21,560 nt of DNA from a virus. The first letter of the stretch is position 1. The number at the start of each line of letters is the position of its first letter. Under the pieces are notes generated by a model that was given only the letters and a program-made list of their open reading frames with translations, did not search any database and was not told the origin of the DNA. The stretch lies in IMG/VR virus record IMGVR_UViG_3300032291_003871, positions 1-21,560 of that record. One strand, given 5' to 3'. A program made the position numbers and the translations under genes. Shown here in pieces: positions 2,095 through 7,065 of the stretch.

Positions 2095-2901
2095 ATGAAA
2101 ATAAAAGTCTCACATGAAGTACCATTAGCAGTACTAAACATCTCTCAAACATTCAATGATTACGATTATTGTTTGCCTCACTTACTAGATAGTGAGTATG
2201 AATATTTTAAGTATTTTGACCAAGCAAAGAAAGATGGTCGTTACATTATCATGGATAATAGTTTACATGAACTAGGTCATGCTTATGATACTGAACGTCT
2301 ATTACATTGGGTTAATTACTTTGAACCAAATGAATTTATTGTACCTGATGTGTGGCAAGATATGCAAGCATCTATTGACAATGCTGCAGAATGGGCTAAA
2401 ATTAAATTACCTTACTATACTACTAAAGTAGCAGTTGTTCAAGCAACTAATATTGAAGAAGCAGCTGAATGTTATTTAAAATATAAATCATTAGGTTATA
2501 AGAAAATAGCATTTTCATATGGTGCTGGATACTATAAAGATCATTTTAAACATCCACTACCAGCAATTTCAACTGCTATGGGTCGAGTAAATGTTATAGG
2601 TAGGTTGTATGATAGCGAGGTTATTGATGCTAATGATAGAGTTCACTTACTTGGATGTGCTGCTCCTCAAGAGTTTTTATTCCACCAGAATTACCCATTC
2701 ATTGAAAGTATAGATACTTCAAATCCAATTATGGCTGCAATGGAAGATAAAATGTATAAAGAACATGGTTTAGATGAAAAACCAATTACTAAAATTGACC
2801 ATGTTATGAATCGTGCCTCTGAAGATATTAACTGGTACGCTTTGCATTACAATGTAAATAAATTTAGAAAAATTAATTGTTTAGATAAAATTATAAAATA
2901 A
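2095..2901 (+). CDS. dpdA: DpdA-like DNA guanine transglycosylase (TGT superfamily)
   Basis: This 268 aa protein looks like a compact member of the tRNA-guanine transglycosylase superfamily. Three acidic landmarks are visible: D54 in IIMDNSLHELG (position of the TDSGGFQ motif of TGT), D85 in FIVPDVWQD (position of the second base-binding Asp) and D207 in ESIDTSNP (position of the nucleophile). VHLLGCAAPQEF at 183-194 matches the TGT segment preceding the nucleophile. In phages such proteins (DpdA) swap guanine in DNA for a 7-deazaguanine base made by FolE, QueD, QueE and QueC, and all four of those genes follow within 5 kb. The protein is shorter than bacterial TGT (about 375 aa) and I see no C-terminal zinc site, as expected for an enzyme that does not act on tRNA. 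Which DpdA subfamily it belongs to cannot be told by eye. Confidence 0.75.
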   Translation: MKIKVSHEVPLAVLNISQTFNDYDYCLPHLLDSEYEYFKYFDQAKKDGRYIIMDNSLHELGHAYDTERLLHWVNYFEPNEFIVPDVWQDMQASIDNAAEWAKIKLPYYTTKVAVVQATNIEEAAECYLKYKSLGYKKIAFSYGAGYYKDHFKHPLPAISTAMGRVNVIGRLYDSEVIDANDRVHLLGCAAPQEFLFHQNYPFIESIDTSNPIMAAMEDKMYKEHGLDEKPITKIDHVMNRASEDINWYALHYNVNKFRKINCLDKIIK

Positions 2902-2906
2902 AAGTT

Positions 2907-3059
2907 ATGGAAGATGTATGGCATGGGTTAGTAGCCCCTACACAAGGTAATTTGTATGAACAAGAATGGAATGATGCTATTAAAAAGTTAAGAAAAGGTC
3001 GTCTTAGTTTGTCAAACGAGGATACAGATATTATATTACAAATAGCAAATAAATTATGA
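2907..3059 (+). CDS. Small hypothetical protein, 50 aa, between dpdA and queC
   Basis: The ATG at 2907 follows AAAGTT, the start context seen at several other genes here. The frame runs 50 codons to a TGA at 3057-3059 that overlaps the queC start in an ATGA arrangement, typical of translational coupling. The product starts MEDVWHGLVAPTQGNLYEQE and continues with a basic helix and SNEDTDIILQIANKL. I do not recognise it. The tight fit between dpdA (5 nt gap) and queC argues that it is a real gene. Confidence 0.6.
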   Translation: MEDVWHGLVAPTQGNLYEQEWNDAIKKLRKGRLSLSNEDTDIILQIANKL

Positions 3060-3904
3060 AGAAACAAGCAGTATTATCATTAAGTGGAGGAATGGATAGT
3101 TCCACACTATTGCTTCATCTACTCGCTAACGAATATGAAGTGACAGCATTATCATTCGATTATGGTCAAAAACATAATGTAGAATTAGAGCGTGCTAAAG
3201 ATTTAATTAAGTATATTAATGGATATTGTATTATAGATGAAGAGTCTAAAACAATGGAATATCCATATTTTGTAAAACATCAAGTTATTAAATTAGATGG
3301 TTTATCTCAATTATTAAACTCAGCATTAGTAACTGGAGGTGAAGAAGTACCTGAAGGGCATTATGCTGAAGAGAATATGAAAGCAACAGTAGTTCCAAAT
3401 CGTAATAAGATTTTTAGTTCTATTATTCAAGCAGTTGCATTATCAATTACAGAACAAAAAGATACTGAATGTGCTATTGCAATGGGAATACATGCGGGTG
3501 ATCACGCTATTTATCCTGACTGTCGTCAAGAGTTTAGAGATGCTGATTTTGAAGCATTTAAGATGGGTAATTGGGGTGCTGAAAAAGTATACCACTACAC
3601 ACCTTATCTTGATGATGATAAGTTTGGTATTTTAGTAGATGGAGATAGTTGCTGTGAATGTTTAGGTCTTGATTTTAATGAAGTATACAAACGTACAAAC
3701 ACATCATATAAACCAATTTACTACTTTTTTAACTGCTACAGTGATTACAAATCAGCATCATCTGTAGAACGAGTTGAAGCATTTATGAAACTTGGAAAAC
3801 CAGACCCAGTTGAATATGCTGACGAGACAGGTCCAGTAAGTTGGGAAACAGTAGTAGAACATGTAAAAACAATTTTAAATAATCACAATAATGCCAACAT
3901 CTAA
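3056..3904 (+). CDS. queC: QueC-family 7-cyano-7-deazaguanine synthase lacking the zinc-site cysteines
   Basis: 282 aa. The N-terminal PP-loop ATP-binding motif is intact (SLSGGMDSSTLLL, residues 8-20), as are FDYGQKHNVELERAK (34-48), VVPNRNKIF (112-120) and GIHAGDHAIYPDCRQEF (144-160). QueC normally converts 7-carboxy-7-deazaguanine, through an amide, into preQ0 with ATP and ammonia. The C-terminal zinc site of the family is one Cys after T-W-S plus CGxCGxC before VER. Here these read TNTSY and DYKSASSVER, so S217, D230, S233 and S236 stand in place of all four cysteines, while the flanking VERVEAF is kept. Other cysteines nearby (C199, C200, C202, C227) are not in the standard places. Activity and product may therefore differ from ordinary QueC: amide, decarboxylated base or preQ0 are all possible. 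The start overlaps the 50 aa gene. Confidence 0.88.
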   Translation: MKKQAVLSLSGGMDSSTLLLHLLANEYEVTALSFDYGQKHNVELERAKDLIKYINGYCIIDEESKTMEYPYFVKHQVIKLDGLSQLLNSALVTGGEEVPEGHYAEENMKATVVPNRNKIFSSIIQAVALSITEQKDTECAIAMGIHAGDHAIYPDCRQEFRDADFEAFKMGNWGAEKVYHYTPYLDDDKFGILVDGDSCCECLGLDFNEVYKRTNTSYKPIYYFFNCYSDYKSASSVERVEAFMKLGKPDPVEYADETGPVSWETVVEHVKTILNNHNNANI

Positions 3905-4055
3905 AAAACGAGGTGGTGAGAAAGCCCACAACAAGCGTGTTTCAAAACGTAATGAAACAGTAGCTAAAAATAGACTAGCTATGGAAAGACAATTCATGTC
4001 TATGTTAAAAGAACAAATGCAAAAACAAAACCCAGAAACCGAAGACAATGCCTAA
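3891..4055 (+). CDS. Small basic protein, 54 aa, between queC and thioredoxin
   Basis: ATG at 3891 lies inside the last codons of queC and the stop TAA at 4053-4055 lies inside the start of the thioredoxin gene, so the frame exactly bridges two genes. The product begins MPTSKKRGGEKAHNKRVSKR and is very rich in Lys and Arg for its first 30 residues, then becomes a Met/Gln-rich helix (MERQFMSMLKEQMQKQ) with a short acidic tail. It could bind nucleic acid, but no known domain is recognised. Confidence 0.65.
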   Translation: MPTSKKRGGEKAHNKRVSKRNETVAKNRLAMERQFMSMLKEQMQKQNPETEDNA

Positions 4056-4302
4056 AGAATTATTTTATTATACAGCAAATTGGTGTACTCCATGTCAAAC
4101 ATTAGGACCAATTATGGATGAGATCGCAAGACAGATCCCAGTCCGTAAACAAAATGTTGATTACACTGATCCACTTCTTTTAGAATCAGCTAATGTACGA
4201 AATGTACCGACAGTTATTTTAGTAGAAAATGGACAAGAAATTAAACGTTTTACAGGAATAAAATCCAACTCACAAATTATAACTTGGTTAAACGAAGGAT
4301 AA
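4048..4302 (+). CDS. Thioredoxin-like protein, WCTPC active site
   Basis: 84 aa with the thioredoxin active site TANWCTPCQTLGP (Cys13 and Cys16) and the cis-proline loop RNVPTVILVENGQ (Pro54). It is shorter than cellular thioredoxin (about 105 aa), with the first strand trimmed, as is common for phage and glutaredoxin-sized thioredoxins. It is expected to reduce disulfides in the cytoplasm. The best-known phage client is ribonucleotide reductase, whose large-subunit gene ends at the left edge of this window, but the placement between queC and queD leaves other clients open. Confidence 0.9.
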   Translation: MPKELFYYTANWCTPCQTLGPIMDEIARQIPVRKQNVDYTDPLLLESANVRNVPTVILVENGQEIKRFTGIKSNSQIITWLNEG

Positions 4303-4303
4303 T

Positions 4304-4771
4304 ATGAAAACAAAATTCCAATCAACAAAAATATTTGATGGGTTTAGTACTGTATTTCGTCAATGGAGAGCAGATGGAACTCACTGTCAATTTCTACATG
4401 GTTATGGTATTTCATTTAAGATTACATTTGAAGGTGAATTAGATGAAAGAAACTGGGTATGGGACTTTGGTGGTATGAAAAGAGCTAAAGGTACTATTGA
4501 TGGTATGAATCCTAAAGCATGGATGGATTTTATGTTTGACCATACTACAATTATAGCTGAAGATGATAAGTATTTAGAATTATTTAAAGACATGGATGCA
4601 GGTAAACTCATTCAATTAAGAGTAATACCAGCTACAGGAGCAGAACAATTTGCTAAATACATTTATGACAAAGTAAATAAATTTGTACTAGAAGAAACAA
4701 ATAATAGAGTACGTGTTACTCAAGTAGAATTTAAAGAACATAATAAAAACTCAGCTATTTATGGAGAATAA
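4304..4771 (+). CDS. queD: QueD-like 6-carboxytetrahydropterin synthase, diverged metal site
   Basis: 155 aa of the QueD/PTPS family. QueD turns dihydroneopterin triphosphate, the FolE product, into 6-carboxy-5,6,7,8-tetrahydropterin. Conserved parts are the catalytic Cys in HCQFLHGYG (C28, H32), KITFEGELDERNWVWDFGGMKRA (DF motif at 54-55, text split here as read in the family), the FDHTTI pair (D79, H80) and the C-terminal EFKEHNKNSAIYGE with E145. Of the three zinc histidines in E. coli QueD, the first (FxAAH) aligns with F18 in FSTVF and the third (second His of HGH) aligns with Y34. Only H32 remains; H27 or H80 might compensate. I recall similar HGY-type QueD proteins from other phages, so this may be a phage subfamily rather than a dead enzyme. 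Its end overlaps queE by 11 nt. Confidence 0.85.
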   Translation: MKTKFQSTKIFDGFSTVFRQWRADGTHCQFLHGYGISFKITFEGELDERNWVWDFGGMKRAKGTIDGMNPKAWMDFMFDHTTIIAEDDKYLELFKDMDAGKLIQLRVIPATGAEQFAKYIYDKVNKFVLEETNNRVRVTQVEFKEHNKNSAIYGE

Positions 4772-5552
4772 AAAACCAGATAGAATAGAAGACTATAATA
4801 AAAAATTACCAATTGTAGAGCTATATACTGCTGTACAATCAGAAGGTAGTAGAGCTGGAATGCCTACAGTAGTTATTAGAACCACTGGCTGTACTCACAG
4901 ATGTTGGTTTGGAGATGGTGGATGGTGTGATAGTTGGTATACAAGTATACATCCTGAGAAAGGAAAATATACGTTTAATGATATTATAGCTATTTATGAC
5001 AATAACCCATACATTAGAGAAATGATGCTAACAGGTGGTTCACCTACAATGCATCCTGACTTAGTAAACGAATTAACTCATTTAGCAGAAAAACGTGGCC
5101 TATTTATTACAATTGAAACAGAAGGCTCTCATTTCATTGAAACTGACTTCCCTATTGGTCTTATATCTCTTAGTCCTAAGTTTAGTAACAGCGTTCCTAC
5201 AATTGGGACTCTTACTCCGCAAGGTAAAGTTGCGGATCAAAAAATGGTGGACCAACATAACAAGTTTCGTCTTGACAAAGAAACAATAAGAAAGACATTA
5301 GAATACCATCATGATTATCATTTTAAACCTGTTTGTAATCCTATTGAAATGCCTGAAGCATGGACTGAGATTGAAGCATTTAGAGTTGAAATGGACATTC
5401 CAAAACGTAAGACTTGGTTAATGCCCCCTGGTGATACAAGAAATGAATTAATTCGAGTATATCCTATGGTGATGGATTTTTGTAGAGATAATGGTTACAA
5501 CTTTACAGGTAGAGAGCACATTATAGCCTTCGATCAAAGGCGTGAGGTTTGA
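4761..5552 (+). CDS. queE: QueE-like 7-carboxy-7-deazaguanine synthase (radical SAM)
   Basis: 263 aa. The opening IVELYTAVQSEGSRAGMPTVVIRTTGC is typical of QueE, where the EG and the run into the cluster-binding loop are conserved. Cluster cysteines are C44, C48 and C56, spaced CX3CX7C rather than the radical-SAM standard CX3CX2C; the insert is WFGDGGW before CDSWYT. Family features that follow are MMLTGGSPTMHPD (the TGGEP SAM-binding motif) and TIETEG. QueE rearranges 6-carboxytetrahydropterin to 7-carboxy-7-deazaguanine using SAM and Mg2+. Insertions in this loop are known in some QueE types, so activity is plausible. The ATG at 4761 lies within the end of queD, suggesting coupled translation. 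Confidence 0.9.
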   Translation: MENKKPDRIEDYNKKLPIVELYTAVQSEGSRAGMPTVVIRTTGCTHRCWFGDGGWCDSWYTSIHPEKGKYTFNDIIAIYDNNPYIREMMLTGGSPTMHPDLVNELTHLAEKRGLFITIETEGSHFIETDFPIGLISLSPKFSNSVPTIGTLTPQGKVADQKMVDQHNKFRLDKETIRKTLEYHHDYHFKPVCNPIEMPEAWTEIEAFRVEMDIPKRKTWLMPPGDTRNELIRVYPMVMDFCRDNGYNFTGREHIIAFDQRREV

Positions 5553-5576: not shown

Positions 5577-5852
5577 ATGGATAAAAAATTATTAACCGAA
5601 ACACTTAAGACAAAGAACACTGTTACATTCTTCTACGCTGATTGGTGTGGGGGATGTAAAGTAGCTAATCCTATGGTTCAAGAAATCGCTGAGAAACTTG
5701 GATTTGAAATCATTAGTATTAATGAGAATGAAGATTTAGAAACAGCATTTGATGTAGATTATTATCCGCATGTGATATTATCTAACAAAGGAAAAATTAA
5801 ACATTACCCAGGATTACATTCAATAAAAGAGTTACATGAAAGTATTATTTGA
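5577..5852 (+). CDS. Second thioredoxin-like protein, WCGGC active site
   Basis: 91 aa with FFYADWCGGCKVANPMV (Cys24 and Cys27) and a cis-proline loop DYYPHVILSNKGK (Pro64). The WCGGC pair differs from the WCTPC of the first thioredoxin, so the two probably have different redox potentials and partners. The gene lies between queE and the phosphoribosyltransferase and its 3' end overlaps the next gene by 17 nt. Nothing in the sequence identifies its client; RNR or a cluster enzyme are both reasonable. Confidence 0.88.
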   Translation: MDKKLLTETLKTKNTVTFFYADWCGGCKVANPMVQEIAEKLGFEIISINENEDLETAFDVDYYPHVILSNKGKIKHYPGLHSIKELHESII

Positions 5853-6369: not shown

Positions 6370-7065
6370 ATGGAAAACAATAGAAGAAAATTTCACAACG
6401 ATATTGAGTGTGTGAAGACAGGTTTAGCAAATGGTGCTGCCTTAGATCGTCCATTAACGGATGATGAAAAACAATCAATGATTGAAGAAGCAACAGAACA
6501 TTTTGGTAAGTTCTTAACCGCATTAAAATGTGATTGGGAAAACGATCCTAATTCTGCTGATACACCTCGTCGTGTAGCTAAAGCATATGTTACTGATTTA
6601 TGGGCGGGTCGATACAATGGATTTACTGATATTACTTCATTCCCATCAGATGGTTATGATGGAGTAATTATTGAACGTAACATCCAATTAACTTCAATGT
6701 GCTCACATCATCACCAAACAATTAAAGGTGTAGTTCATATTGGCTACATCGCAGGTGCTGAAGGTAGAGTAATTGGTTTATCTAAATTAAATCGTATTGT
6801 AGAACACTTTGGTCGTAGAGGAGCTATTCAAGAGCAATTAACAGCAGCAATTCATCAAGCAGTGAATAAAGTTTGTGAAGAAAATTTAGGTGTTATTGTC
6901 ACTGTAGTTGCTTCTCACAGTTGTGTTAGTTGTAGAGGTATTAAACATCAAGGTGCTGCAATGGTTACTACTAAAGCATCAGGTGTGTTTATGGAAAATG
7001 ATAATTTAGCACGTAAAGAATTTTTTGATTCACTTAAAATAAATAATGGCCATGTCTCAATCTAA
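6370..7065 (+). CDS. folE: GTP cyclohydrolase I
   Basis: 231 aa, full length for the family. Zinc ligands are in place: C111 and H114 in TSMCSHHHQTIKG, and C185 in ASHSCVSCRGIKHQGA. VIGLSKLNRIVEHFGRR (134-150), NSADTPRRVAKAY (61-73) and the TTKASGVF tail are classical FolE segments. The enzyme opens GTP to dihydroneopterin triphosphate, the first step to both folates and 7-deazaguanines; in a phage with queD, queE and queC the second use is the likely one. The gene has its own promoter (6333-6364) and its last 20 nt overlap the next gene. Unlike the phage QueC and QueD here, it keeps every metal ligand I can check. Confidence 0.96.
   Translation: MENNRRKFHNDIECVKTGLANGAALDRPLTDDEKQSMIEEATEHFGKFLTALKCDWENDPNSADTPRRVAKAYVTDLWAGRYNGFTDITSFPSDGYDGVIIERNIQLTSMCSHHHQTIKGVVHIGYIAGAEGRVIGLSKLNRIVEHFGRRGAIQEQLTAAIHQAVNKVCEENLGVIVTVVASHSCVSCRGIKHQGAAMVTTKASGVFMENDNLARKEFFDSLKINNGHVSI

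What the first reader, a model, noticed from the sequence alone, without database searches (positions are those of the whole stretch)
4304..4771. QueD with two of three zinc histidines replaced
In FSTVF and HGYG the positions of the first and third zinc histidines of E. coli QueD are Phe18 and Tyr34. The catalytic Cys28, Asp79-His80 and Glu145 are kept. Together with QueC, two neighbouring enzymes of one pathway show abnormal metal sites, which suggests co-ordinated divergence rather than chance decay.
Basis: partly seen in the sequence, partly recalled or inferred. Interest (0 to 1): 0.55.

Follow-up and report, generated by a model that had tools for sequence, protein, structure and literature searches.

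The report
Phage QueD with remodelled zinc site
A phage enzyme that makes a modified DNA base has lost two of the three histidines its known relatives use to hold zinc; the same change is kept across a large family in phages, bacteria and marine archaea, so it looks like a working redesign rather than a broken gene.

Summary
Window 4304-4771 encodes a 155-residue tunnel-fold QueD relative with Phe18 and Tyr34 at the first and third zinc-histidine positions; Cys28, Asp79-His80 and Glu145 are kept. It is not decay: F18 and Y34 are kept in 79 and 80 of 80 cellular-contig loci found with a pattern that does not cover either residue, while their codons vary synonymously. Y34 rows cluster in one part of the tree, one origin not excluded; canonical, H18+HGY and F18+HGY forms all survive. 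In 18 of 18 marine Group II-type archaeal genomes the HGY protein is the only PTPS-family protein, usually inside folE-queE-queC-queD operons, so it most likely makes 6-carboxytetrahydropterin. Co-ordinated divergence with QueC is not a rule: all four combinations of QueD and QueC metal sites occur. Extra finding: in Alphaproteobacteria the same family sits beside folE and a PruR-DcpA-like pair, sometimes without QueC or QueE found. I rate it a new variant of a known kind: probably zinc-independent, or with a re-sited metal. No activity or metal was measured, and no coordinates were available.

The parts
4304..4771 (+). HGY-type QueD / PTPS-family gene (155 aa)
   Evidence: PF01242 E 1.8e-14, 54.2 bits over a cut-off of 22.4; phrog_2389 E 3e-41; AF2 model pLDDT 94.3
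4355..4357 (+). codon of Phe18, at the first zinc-His position (E. coli His16)
   Evidence: F18 in 79 of 80 unbiased cellular loci
4382..4384 (+). codon of His27, clade-specific His next to the catalytic Cys
   Evidence: H in 51 of 52 Y34 rows; canonical rows K15 R1 Q1 P1
4385..4387 (+). codon of Cys28, conserved catalytic Cys position
   Evidence: 52 of 52 and 18 of 18
4397..4399 (+). codon of His32, the one zinc-His position kept (E. coli His31)
4403..4405 (+). codon of Tyr34, at the third zinc-His position (E. coli His33)
   Evidence: Y34 in 80 of 80 unbiased cellular loci
4538..4543 (+). codons of Asp79-His80, kept
4736..4738 (+). codon of Glu145, kept; followed by clade-specific Asn149 at 4748-4750
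3056..3904 (+). QueC-family gene without the four zinc cysteines
   Evidence: PF06508 E 2e-36; alignment with Zn-type and Zn-less QueC
4761..5552 (+). QueE-like radical SAM gene, overlaps queD by 11 bases, cluster motif CX3CX7C
   Evidence: PF04055 E 2e-8, phrog_2076 E 6e-48; motif
6370..7065 (+). FolE (GTP cyclohydrolase I), zinc-ligand positions kept
   Evidence: PF01227 E 1.5e-41; alignment (ligand identity recalled)
2095..2901 (+). probable DpdA-type DNA guanine transglycosylase (weak evidence)
   Evidence: NCBIfam DpdA E 0.03, far below cut-off; phrog_19058, function unknown; a dpdA is annotated in the matching operon of Flavobacterium phage immuto, homology of the two not tested

Best explanation
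The gene encodes a working QueD-type enzyme (dihydroneopterin triphosphate to 6-carboxytetrahydropterin) of a large clade whose metal site has been rebuilt. SHOWN here: the fold, the kept catalytic residues, the loss of two of the three zinc histidines, long purifying selection on the new residues, and its place in folE-queE-queC operons of phages and archaea. INFERRED: the enzyme no longer uses the three-His zinc. Cys28, helped by Asp79-His80, still takes the proton from the side chain and Glu145 still anchors the pterin; the work of zinc on the side-chain hydroxyls is taken over by hydrogen bonds from Tyr34, His32 and His27, much as the tunnel-fold aldolase FolB works without a metal (FolB mechanism recalled). 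In this phage the product feeds QueE, the QueC-like enzyme and a DpdA-like transglycosylase to put a 7-deazaguanine into phage DNA, a known anti-restriction device.
For: Conservation: F18/H27/C28/H32/Y34 each 81 of 81; Y34 80 of 80 and F18 79 of 80 in loci found without the motif. Silent codon variation: F18 TTC 117 / TTT 122, Y34 TAT 185 / TAC 55, over 240 loci. Catalytic residues invariant. AF2 model pLDDT 94.3, pTM 0.89; best solved folds are PTPS/QueD: 3jyg Z 15.2, E. coli QueD 4ntn Z 13.3, rmsd 1.9 over 116 residues. 18 of 18 marine Group II-type archaeal genomes have exactly one PTPS-family match and it is HGY. Of those 18 loci, QueC is near in 16, QueE in 16, FolE in 15; QueC at about 130 bits or more in 8 of 8 genomes tested and a 716-795-codon TGT frame in 7 of 8. 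Such genomes need a 6-carboxytetrahydropterin source and have no other candidate of this family. An Aminobacter plasmid carries queE - HGY queD - ordinary queC. Canonical, H18+HGY and F18+HGY forms all survive.
Against: No member was assayed here, and I found no assay in print. The phage QueD shown to replace E. coli QueD (9g; passages of PMC6884629) is the ordinary HGH type, so it does not cover this clade. Five Microvirga genomes carry the HGY protein as their only PTPS but show no QueC (only 20-26 bits, at most about a third of the profile) and no TIGR03365 QueE, so at least part of the clade makes something else. NCBIfam QueD (TIGR03367) scores 30.7 against a cut-off of 89.25. Absence of metal is inferred from lost ligands only; H27 could rebuild a metal site.
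Confidence: 0.6

Rival explanations
1. Re-sited metal: the clade still binds a metal (iron, manganese or zinc), with His27, His32 and Tyr34, perhaps with His80, as ligands instead of the three histidines.
For: H27 arose in this clade and is almost invariant (51 of 52; 239 of 240); H27 is also present in the HGH-type sister row L415 that still has all three zinc histidines; Tyr can bind metal.
Against: pf16 lacks H27 (Glu), L239 has Met27 and the Streptomyces row has Lys27, all with HGY. Phe18 removes a ligand outright. The geometry could not be measured.
Confidence: 0.22
2. Changed reaction: the clade turns dihydroneopterin triphosphate into a different pterin, and QueE takes that or gets its substrate from the host.
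For: In 37 alphaproteobacterial loci folE is near in 32 (adjacent, same strand, in 27), a PruR-like protein in 23 and a DcpA-like GGDEF-EAL protein in 24, but QueC in only 1 and QueE in 3; five Microvirga genomes show neither QueC nor TIGR03365 QueE. A PTPS with HGY also lies in a Streptomyces NRPS-PKS cluster.
Against: In 18 marine Group II-type genomes it is the only PTPS and mostly in full preQ0 operons; Aminobacter pairs it with ordinary QueE and QueC.
Confidence: 0.15
3. Decaying or vestigial gene; the host QueD supplies the intermediate.
For: Many hosts of such phages have the queuosine pathway (passages of PMC6884629); two zinc ligands are lost.
Against: The replaced residues are nearly invariant across viral, bacterial and archaeal loci with silent codon variation, and the protein is the sole PTPS in 18 archaeal genomes.
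Confidence: 0.03

Closest known systems
QueD / PTPS-I, 6-carboxytetrahydropterin synthase (E. coli 4ntn, 4ntk, 3qn0)
   Same: Tunnel fold (Z 13.3, rmsd 1.9 over 116 residues), catalytic Cys, Asp-His and Glu, context with folE, queE and queC
   Different: CxxxHGY instead of CxxxHGH, Phe for the first zinc His, extra His before Cys; 30.7 bits against a cut-off of 89.25 for TIGR03367
QueD2 of Acinetobacter baumannii (7v0f), a paralog of the kind linked to Zur regulons
   Same: A second kind of QueD with a proposed link to metal shortage; the model aligns at Z 12.7
   Different: 7v0f keeps HGH, and Haas 2009 reports that the zinc residues are conserved in Zur-linked QueD paralogs (passages of PMC2770081)
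Phage 9g-type QueD (HGH)
   Same: Phage enzyme in a DNA 7-deazaguanine operon; complements E. coli queD (passages of PMC6884629)
   Different: All three zinc histidines present, not in the HGY clade
Wolinella succinogenes WS1659 (3jyg), uncharacterised
   Same: Closest solved fold, Z 15.2, 141 residues
   Different: Keeps HGH
FolB / FolX tunnel-fold aldolases and epimerases
   Same: Same superfamily fold (Z about 7); known to work on related pterins without zinc (recalled)
   Different: No sequence similarity of note; no catalytic Cys-Asp-His set (recalled)

Membership tests
PTPS superfamily (PF01242) | Profile score over the curated cut-off | tested here: met
   54.2 bits against 22.4, residues 14-154
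PTPS superfamily (PF01242) | Tunnel fold | tested here: met
   AF2 pLDDT 94.3; 3jyg Z 15.2, 4ntn Z 13.3
QueD / PTPS-I | NCBIfam equivalog TIGR03367 cut-off | tested here: not met
   30.7 against 89.25 bits
QueD / PTPS-I | CxxxHGH signature (stated in passages of PMC5041015) | tested here: not met
   CQFLHGY; Y34 in 80 of 80 unbiased cellular loci
QueD / PTPS-I | Three-His zinc site | tested here: not met
   Positions 18 and 34 are Phe and Tyr by two alignments; actual metal content not testable
QueD / PTPS-I | Catalytic Cys, Asp-His and Glu | tested here: met
   C28, D79, H80, E145
QueD / PTPS-I | Operon with folE, queE and queC | tested here: met
   for the window; for 18 archaeal loci
QueD / PTPS-I | Makes 6-carboxytetrahydropterin | not testable with these tools
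   No assay possible; no assay of this clade found in the papers searched
PTPS-II | CxxxxxHGH signature (passages of PMC5041015) | tested here: not met
   Cys is four residues before His32, and HGY not HGH
PTPS-III | ExxHGH signature (passages of PMC5041015) | tested here: not met
   QFLHGY, no Glu

The most novel reading that the evidence does not exclude
A zinc-independent clade of tetrahydropterin synthases, reached through surviving intermediates. Phages and marine Group II archaea use it for 7-deazaguanine in DNA or tRNA, in marine Group II together with a zinc-less QueC. In Alphaproteobacteria it is coupled to FolE to make the still unidentified tetrahydropterin signal sensed by PruR-DcpA-type c-di-GMP switches.
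Probability: 0.25. Interest if true: 0.78.

Novelty: new variant of a known kind. Interest (0 to 1): 0.55.

Why it matters
Zinc is taken as essential for QueD (PMC9508795 lists FolE1, QueD, QueC and TGT as zinc-requiring; passages). The Zur-linked QueD paralogs examined in 2009 still had their zinc residues (PMC2770081, passages). A large clade, including the only QueD of marine Group II-type archaea, that dispenses with two of three ligands makes zinc independence of this step directly testable. It also shows that the published isofunctionality of phage QueDs rests on an HGH member (9g). The link with folE and PruR-DcpA offers a candidate route to a pterin signal that a 2026 review calls unclear (PMC13259868, passages).

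Tried and rejected
Rejected: decay, frame error or sequencing error. Rejected: tight coupling of QueD and QueC metal loss. Considered and left open: a re-sited metal; no tool gave model coordinates, so distances could not be measured.

Led nowhere: Cui 2023 on phage 7-deazaguanines and the E. coli QueD structure paper are not held. A search for the enzyme name DpdL gave only unrelated uses of the letters among the 10 listed. Mycobacterium phage Rosebush, whose host has no preQ0 genes, is not in the phage collection under the accession tried, so its QueD type stays unknown. The MMDA13 paper (passages) and the Dinoroseobacter phage paper (passages) gave no DNA-base measurement for an HGY phage; phage MED16 is modified, but its abstract and passages name only a DpdA gene of this pathway in the phage.

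Limits and errors: the residue-18 group labels printed are wrong (a loose pattern) and are not used; one search relabels by alignment column, and there I dropped two long-branch rows (L267_g, L373_x) and the three trait columns. One row in the listing (L124) was misread by the first pattern; one search reads it correctly. The QueC classes come from regular expressions; L414, read, keeps part of the cysteine set and was classed as Zn-less. The QueE spacing printed for L084 is an artefact. The two viral scans return some contigs twice (for example L004 and L184), so the 240 loci are not independent. Presence of FolE, PruR and DcpA was judged by phmmer from one to three seed proteins at E 1e-8. 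The MGII label was given from record titles (Euryarchaeota, Poseidoniaceae, Poseidoniales, Thalassarchaeum) plus sequence likeness; two more MGII-like loci with other titles (L176, L177) were not counted among the 18.

Full report
WHAT IS THERE. The ORF at 4304-4771 (+) encodes 155 residues. It overlaps the following queE-like gene by 11 bases and lies in a run with a QueC-family gene, two thioredoxin-like genes, QueE, an HPRT-like gene and FolE; a DpdA-like gene is upstream. The window is the whole of one IMG/VR virus record of 21560 bases. The protein is a PTPS-family member (PF01242, 54.2 bits against 22.4; phrog_2389) but falls far below the NCBIfam QueD cut-off (30.7 against 89.25).

THE OBSERVATION. 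F18 and Y34 align with the first and third zinc histidines of E. coli QueD in a MAFFT alignment and in a profile alignment to the PDB sequences. C28, D79, H80 and E145 are kept. The zinc and catalytic roles of the E. coli residues are recalled. The substitution is not private to this phage: F18, H27, C28, H32 and Y34 are each 81 of 81 in the window plus 80 viral loci. Because the viral scans' peptide patterns touch the motif, the better test is the genome-contig scan, whose only pattern lies around residues 46-55 (97 relatives, best 80 kept): 80 of 80 have Y34 and 79 of 80 F18. In named phages, of 20 relatives fetched, 17 have HGY, of which 14 have F18, two His18 and one Tyr18; three have HGH (YongL2, BP15, JG054); 9g, fetched separately, is HGH. 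Silent codon changes at these sites (F18 TTC 117 / TTT 122; Y34 TAT 185 / TAC 55) show selection on the residue.

ORIGIN. In a 74-row tree the HGY rows sit in one branch (support 99/97) that also holds YongL2 (F18, HGH), and the next branch is L415, which has all three zinc histidines plus the new H27. With the three trait columns removed, Y34 needs two changes on the tree (bootstrap range 1-3; one origin is not excluded) and residue 18 needs three. PA5oct gp226, pf16 and a Bacteriovoracaceae protein keep His18 with HGY and group together (99/99); a Streptomyces protein has His18, Lys27 and HGY. So possible stepwise stages survive. Clade-specific residues besides 18 and 34 include Q20, H27, W51, G56 and N149.

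STRUCTURE. AlphaFold2 on an alignment of 60 window and locus proteins gives pLDDT 94.3 and pTM 0.89. Foldseek and VIA-align put it on PTPS/QueD structures: 3jyg Z 15.2, E. coli QueD 4ntn Z 13.3, QueD2 7v0f Z 12.7; FolB-type aldolases follow at about Z 7. Metal geometry could not be measured.

FUNCTION. Three lines say that the clade can do QueD's job. First, in marine Group II-type archaea (18 loci by record title) the HGY protein is the only PF01242 match in 18 of 18 genomes (motifs read), with QueC near in 16 of 18 loci, QueE in 16 and FolE in 15; QueC scores about 130 bits or more in 8 of 8 genomes tested and a TGT frame of 716-795 codons is present in 7 of 8. Second, Aminobacter plasmid pSR3 carries queE - HGY queD - zinc-type queC. 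Third, phage operons hold folE, queE and often queC and dpdA. Against: five Microvirga genomes have HGY as sole PTPS but no convincing QueC (PF06508 hits of 20-26 bits over at most about a third of the profile) and no TIGR03365 QueE, though Microvirga alba, which serves as a positive control, has both next to a second, HGH-type PTPS. In 37 alphaproteobacterial loci folE is near in 32 (adjacent on the same strand in 27), a PruR-like protein in 23 and a GGDEF-EAL DcpA-like protein in 24 (Pfam domains of the Microvirga alba copies). PruR-DcpA is a pterin-sensing c-di-GMP switch whose true ligand is stated to be unclear (PMC13259868, passages; the word search of that text found no QueD or PTPS). 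So the clade probably has at least two roles.

CO-ORDINATED DIVERGENCE. The window's QueC lacks the four zinc cysteines and is 46% identical to a marine Group II-type QueC that lacks them too. The canonical motif is C(x)8CxxCxxC, with Tyr189 essential in E. coli (PMC13329287, one section and passages); a Tyr in the corresponding stretch is kept here (Y218). But the two losses are separable. Loci found through QueD: Zn-less QueC + HGY 148, Zn + HGY 7, Zn + HGH 4, other 1, of 160. Loci found through diverse QueCs: Zn-less + HGH 26, Zn + HGH 21, Zn + HGY 10, Zn-less + HGY 9, of 80, the rest lacking or with an unclear QueD. Loci found through window-like QueC: HGY 65, HGH 3, none 10, unclear 1, of 79 (regular-expression classes; 16 read by eye). 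FolE keeps its metal-ligand positions. The QueE cluster motif of this lineage has an insertion.

MECHANISM. Shown: residues, fold, context, selection. Inferred: Cys28 with Asp79-His80 as base and Glu145 as pterin anchor act as in QueD, and Tyr34, His32 and His27 replace the polarising role of zinc by hydrogen bonds (about 0.6 for a functional, non-canonical-zinc QueD; 0.22 for a metal re-sited on H27/H32/Y34; 0.15 for a changed product).

WHAT IS KNOWN. Phage 9g QueD complements E. coli, and phage QueDs were called isofunctional from clustering (PMC6884629, passages); 9g is HGH, so the HGY clade was not tested by that experiment. Zur-linked QueD paralogs keep zinc residues (PMC2770081, passages). 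PTPS-I is defined by CxxxHGH (PMC5041015, passages). I found no description of the HGY clade in searches of the open library; Cui 2023 is not held, so it may be described there. Recalled only: Cui 2023 reports further 7-deazaguanine bases in phages, which I could not check.

VERDICT. Observation confirmed; interpretation partly supported; new variant of a known kind; interest 0.55.

Noticed in passing
window 4761-5552; related loci: QueE of this lineage has an insertion between the second and third cysteines of the radical-SAM motif: CX3CX7C in 96 of 181 loci with QueE, CX3CX35C in 41, CX3CX2C in 32, other or none in 12 (examples read, one artefact noted).
   Followed up: partly
window 3056-3904: QueC without its zinc cysteines, shared with marine Group II-type archaea; a second, different zinc-less QueC type (TDYNG...DNPAS) occurs in other phages with HGH QueD.
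   Followed up: partly
L119 2033-6438 and similar alphaproteobacterial loci: folE - HGY PTPS next to a PruR-like and a GGDEF-EAL protein: a possible biosynthesis gene pair for a pterin signal.
   Followed up: partly
L493 5896-6453: PTPS with His18, Lys27 and HGY inside an NRPS-PKS cluster on a Streptomyces californicus plasmid.
   Followed up: no
L414: A viral contig with two divergent PTPS-family ORFs, one reading LHGC and the other THAY in place of LHGY.
   Followed up: no
L093: Phage PA5oct has two QueD-like genes, gp226 (His18, HGY) and gp230, of which only the end was read.
   Followed up: no
window 4048-4302 and 5577-5852: Two thioredoxin-like small proteins flank queD and queE (PF00085).
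   Followed up: no
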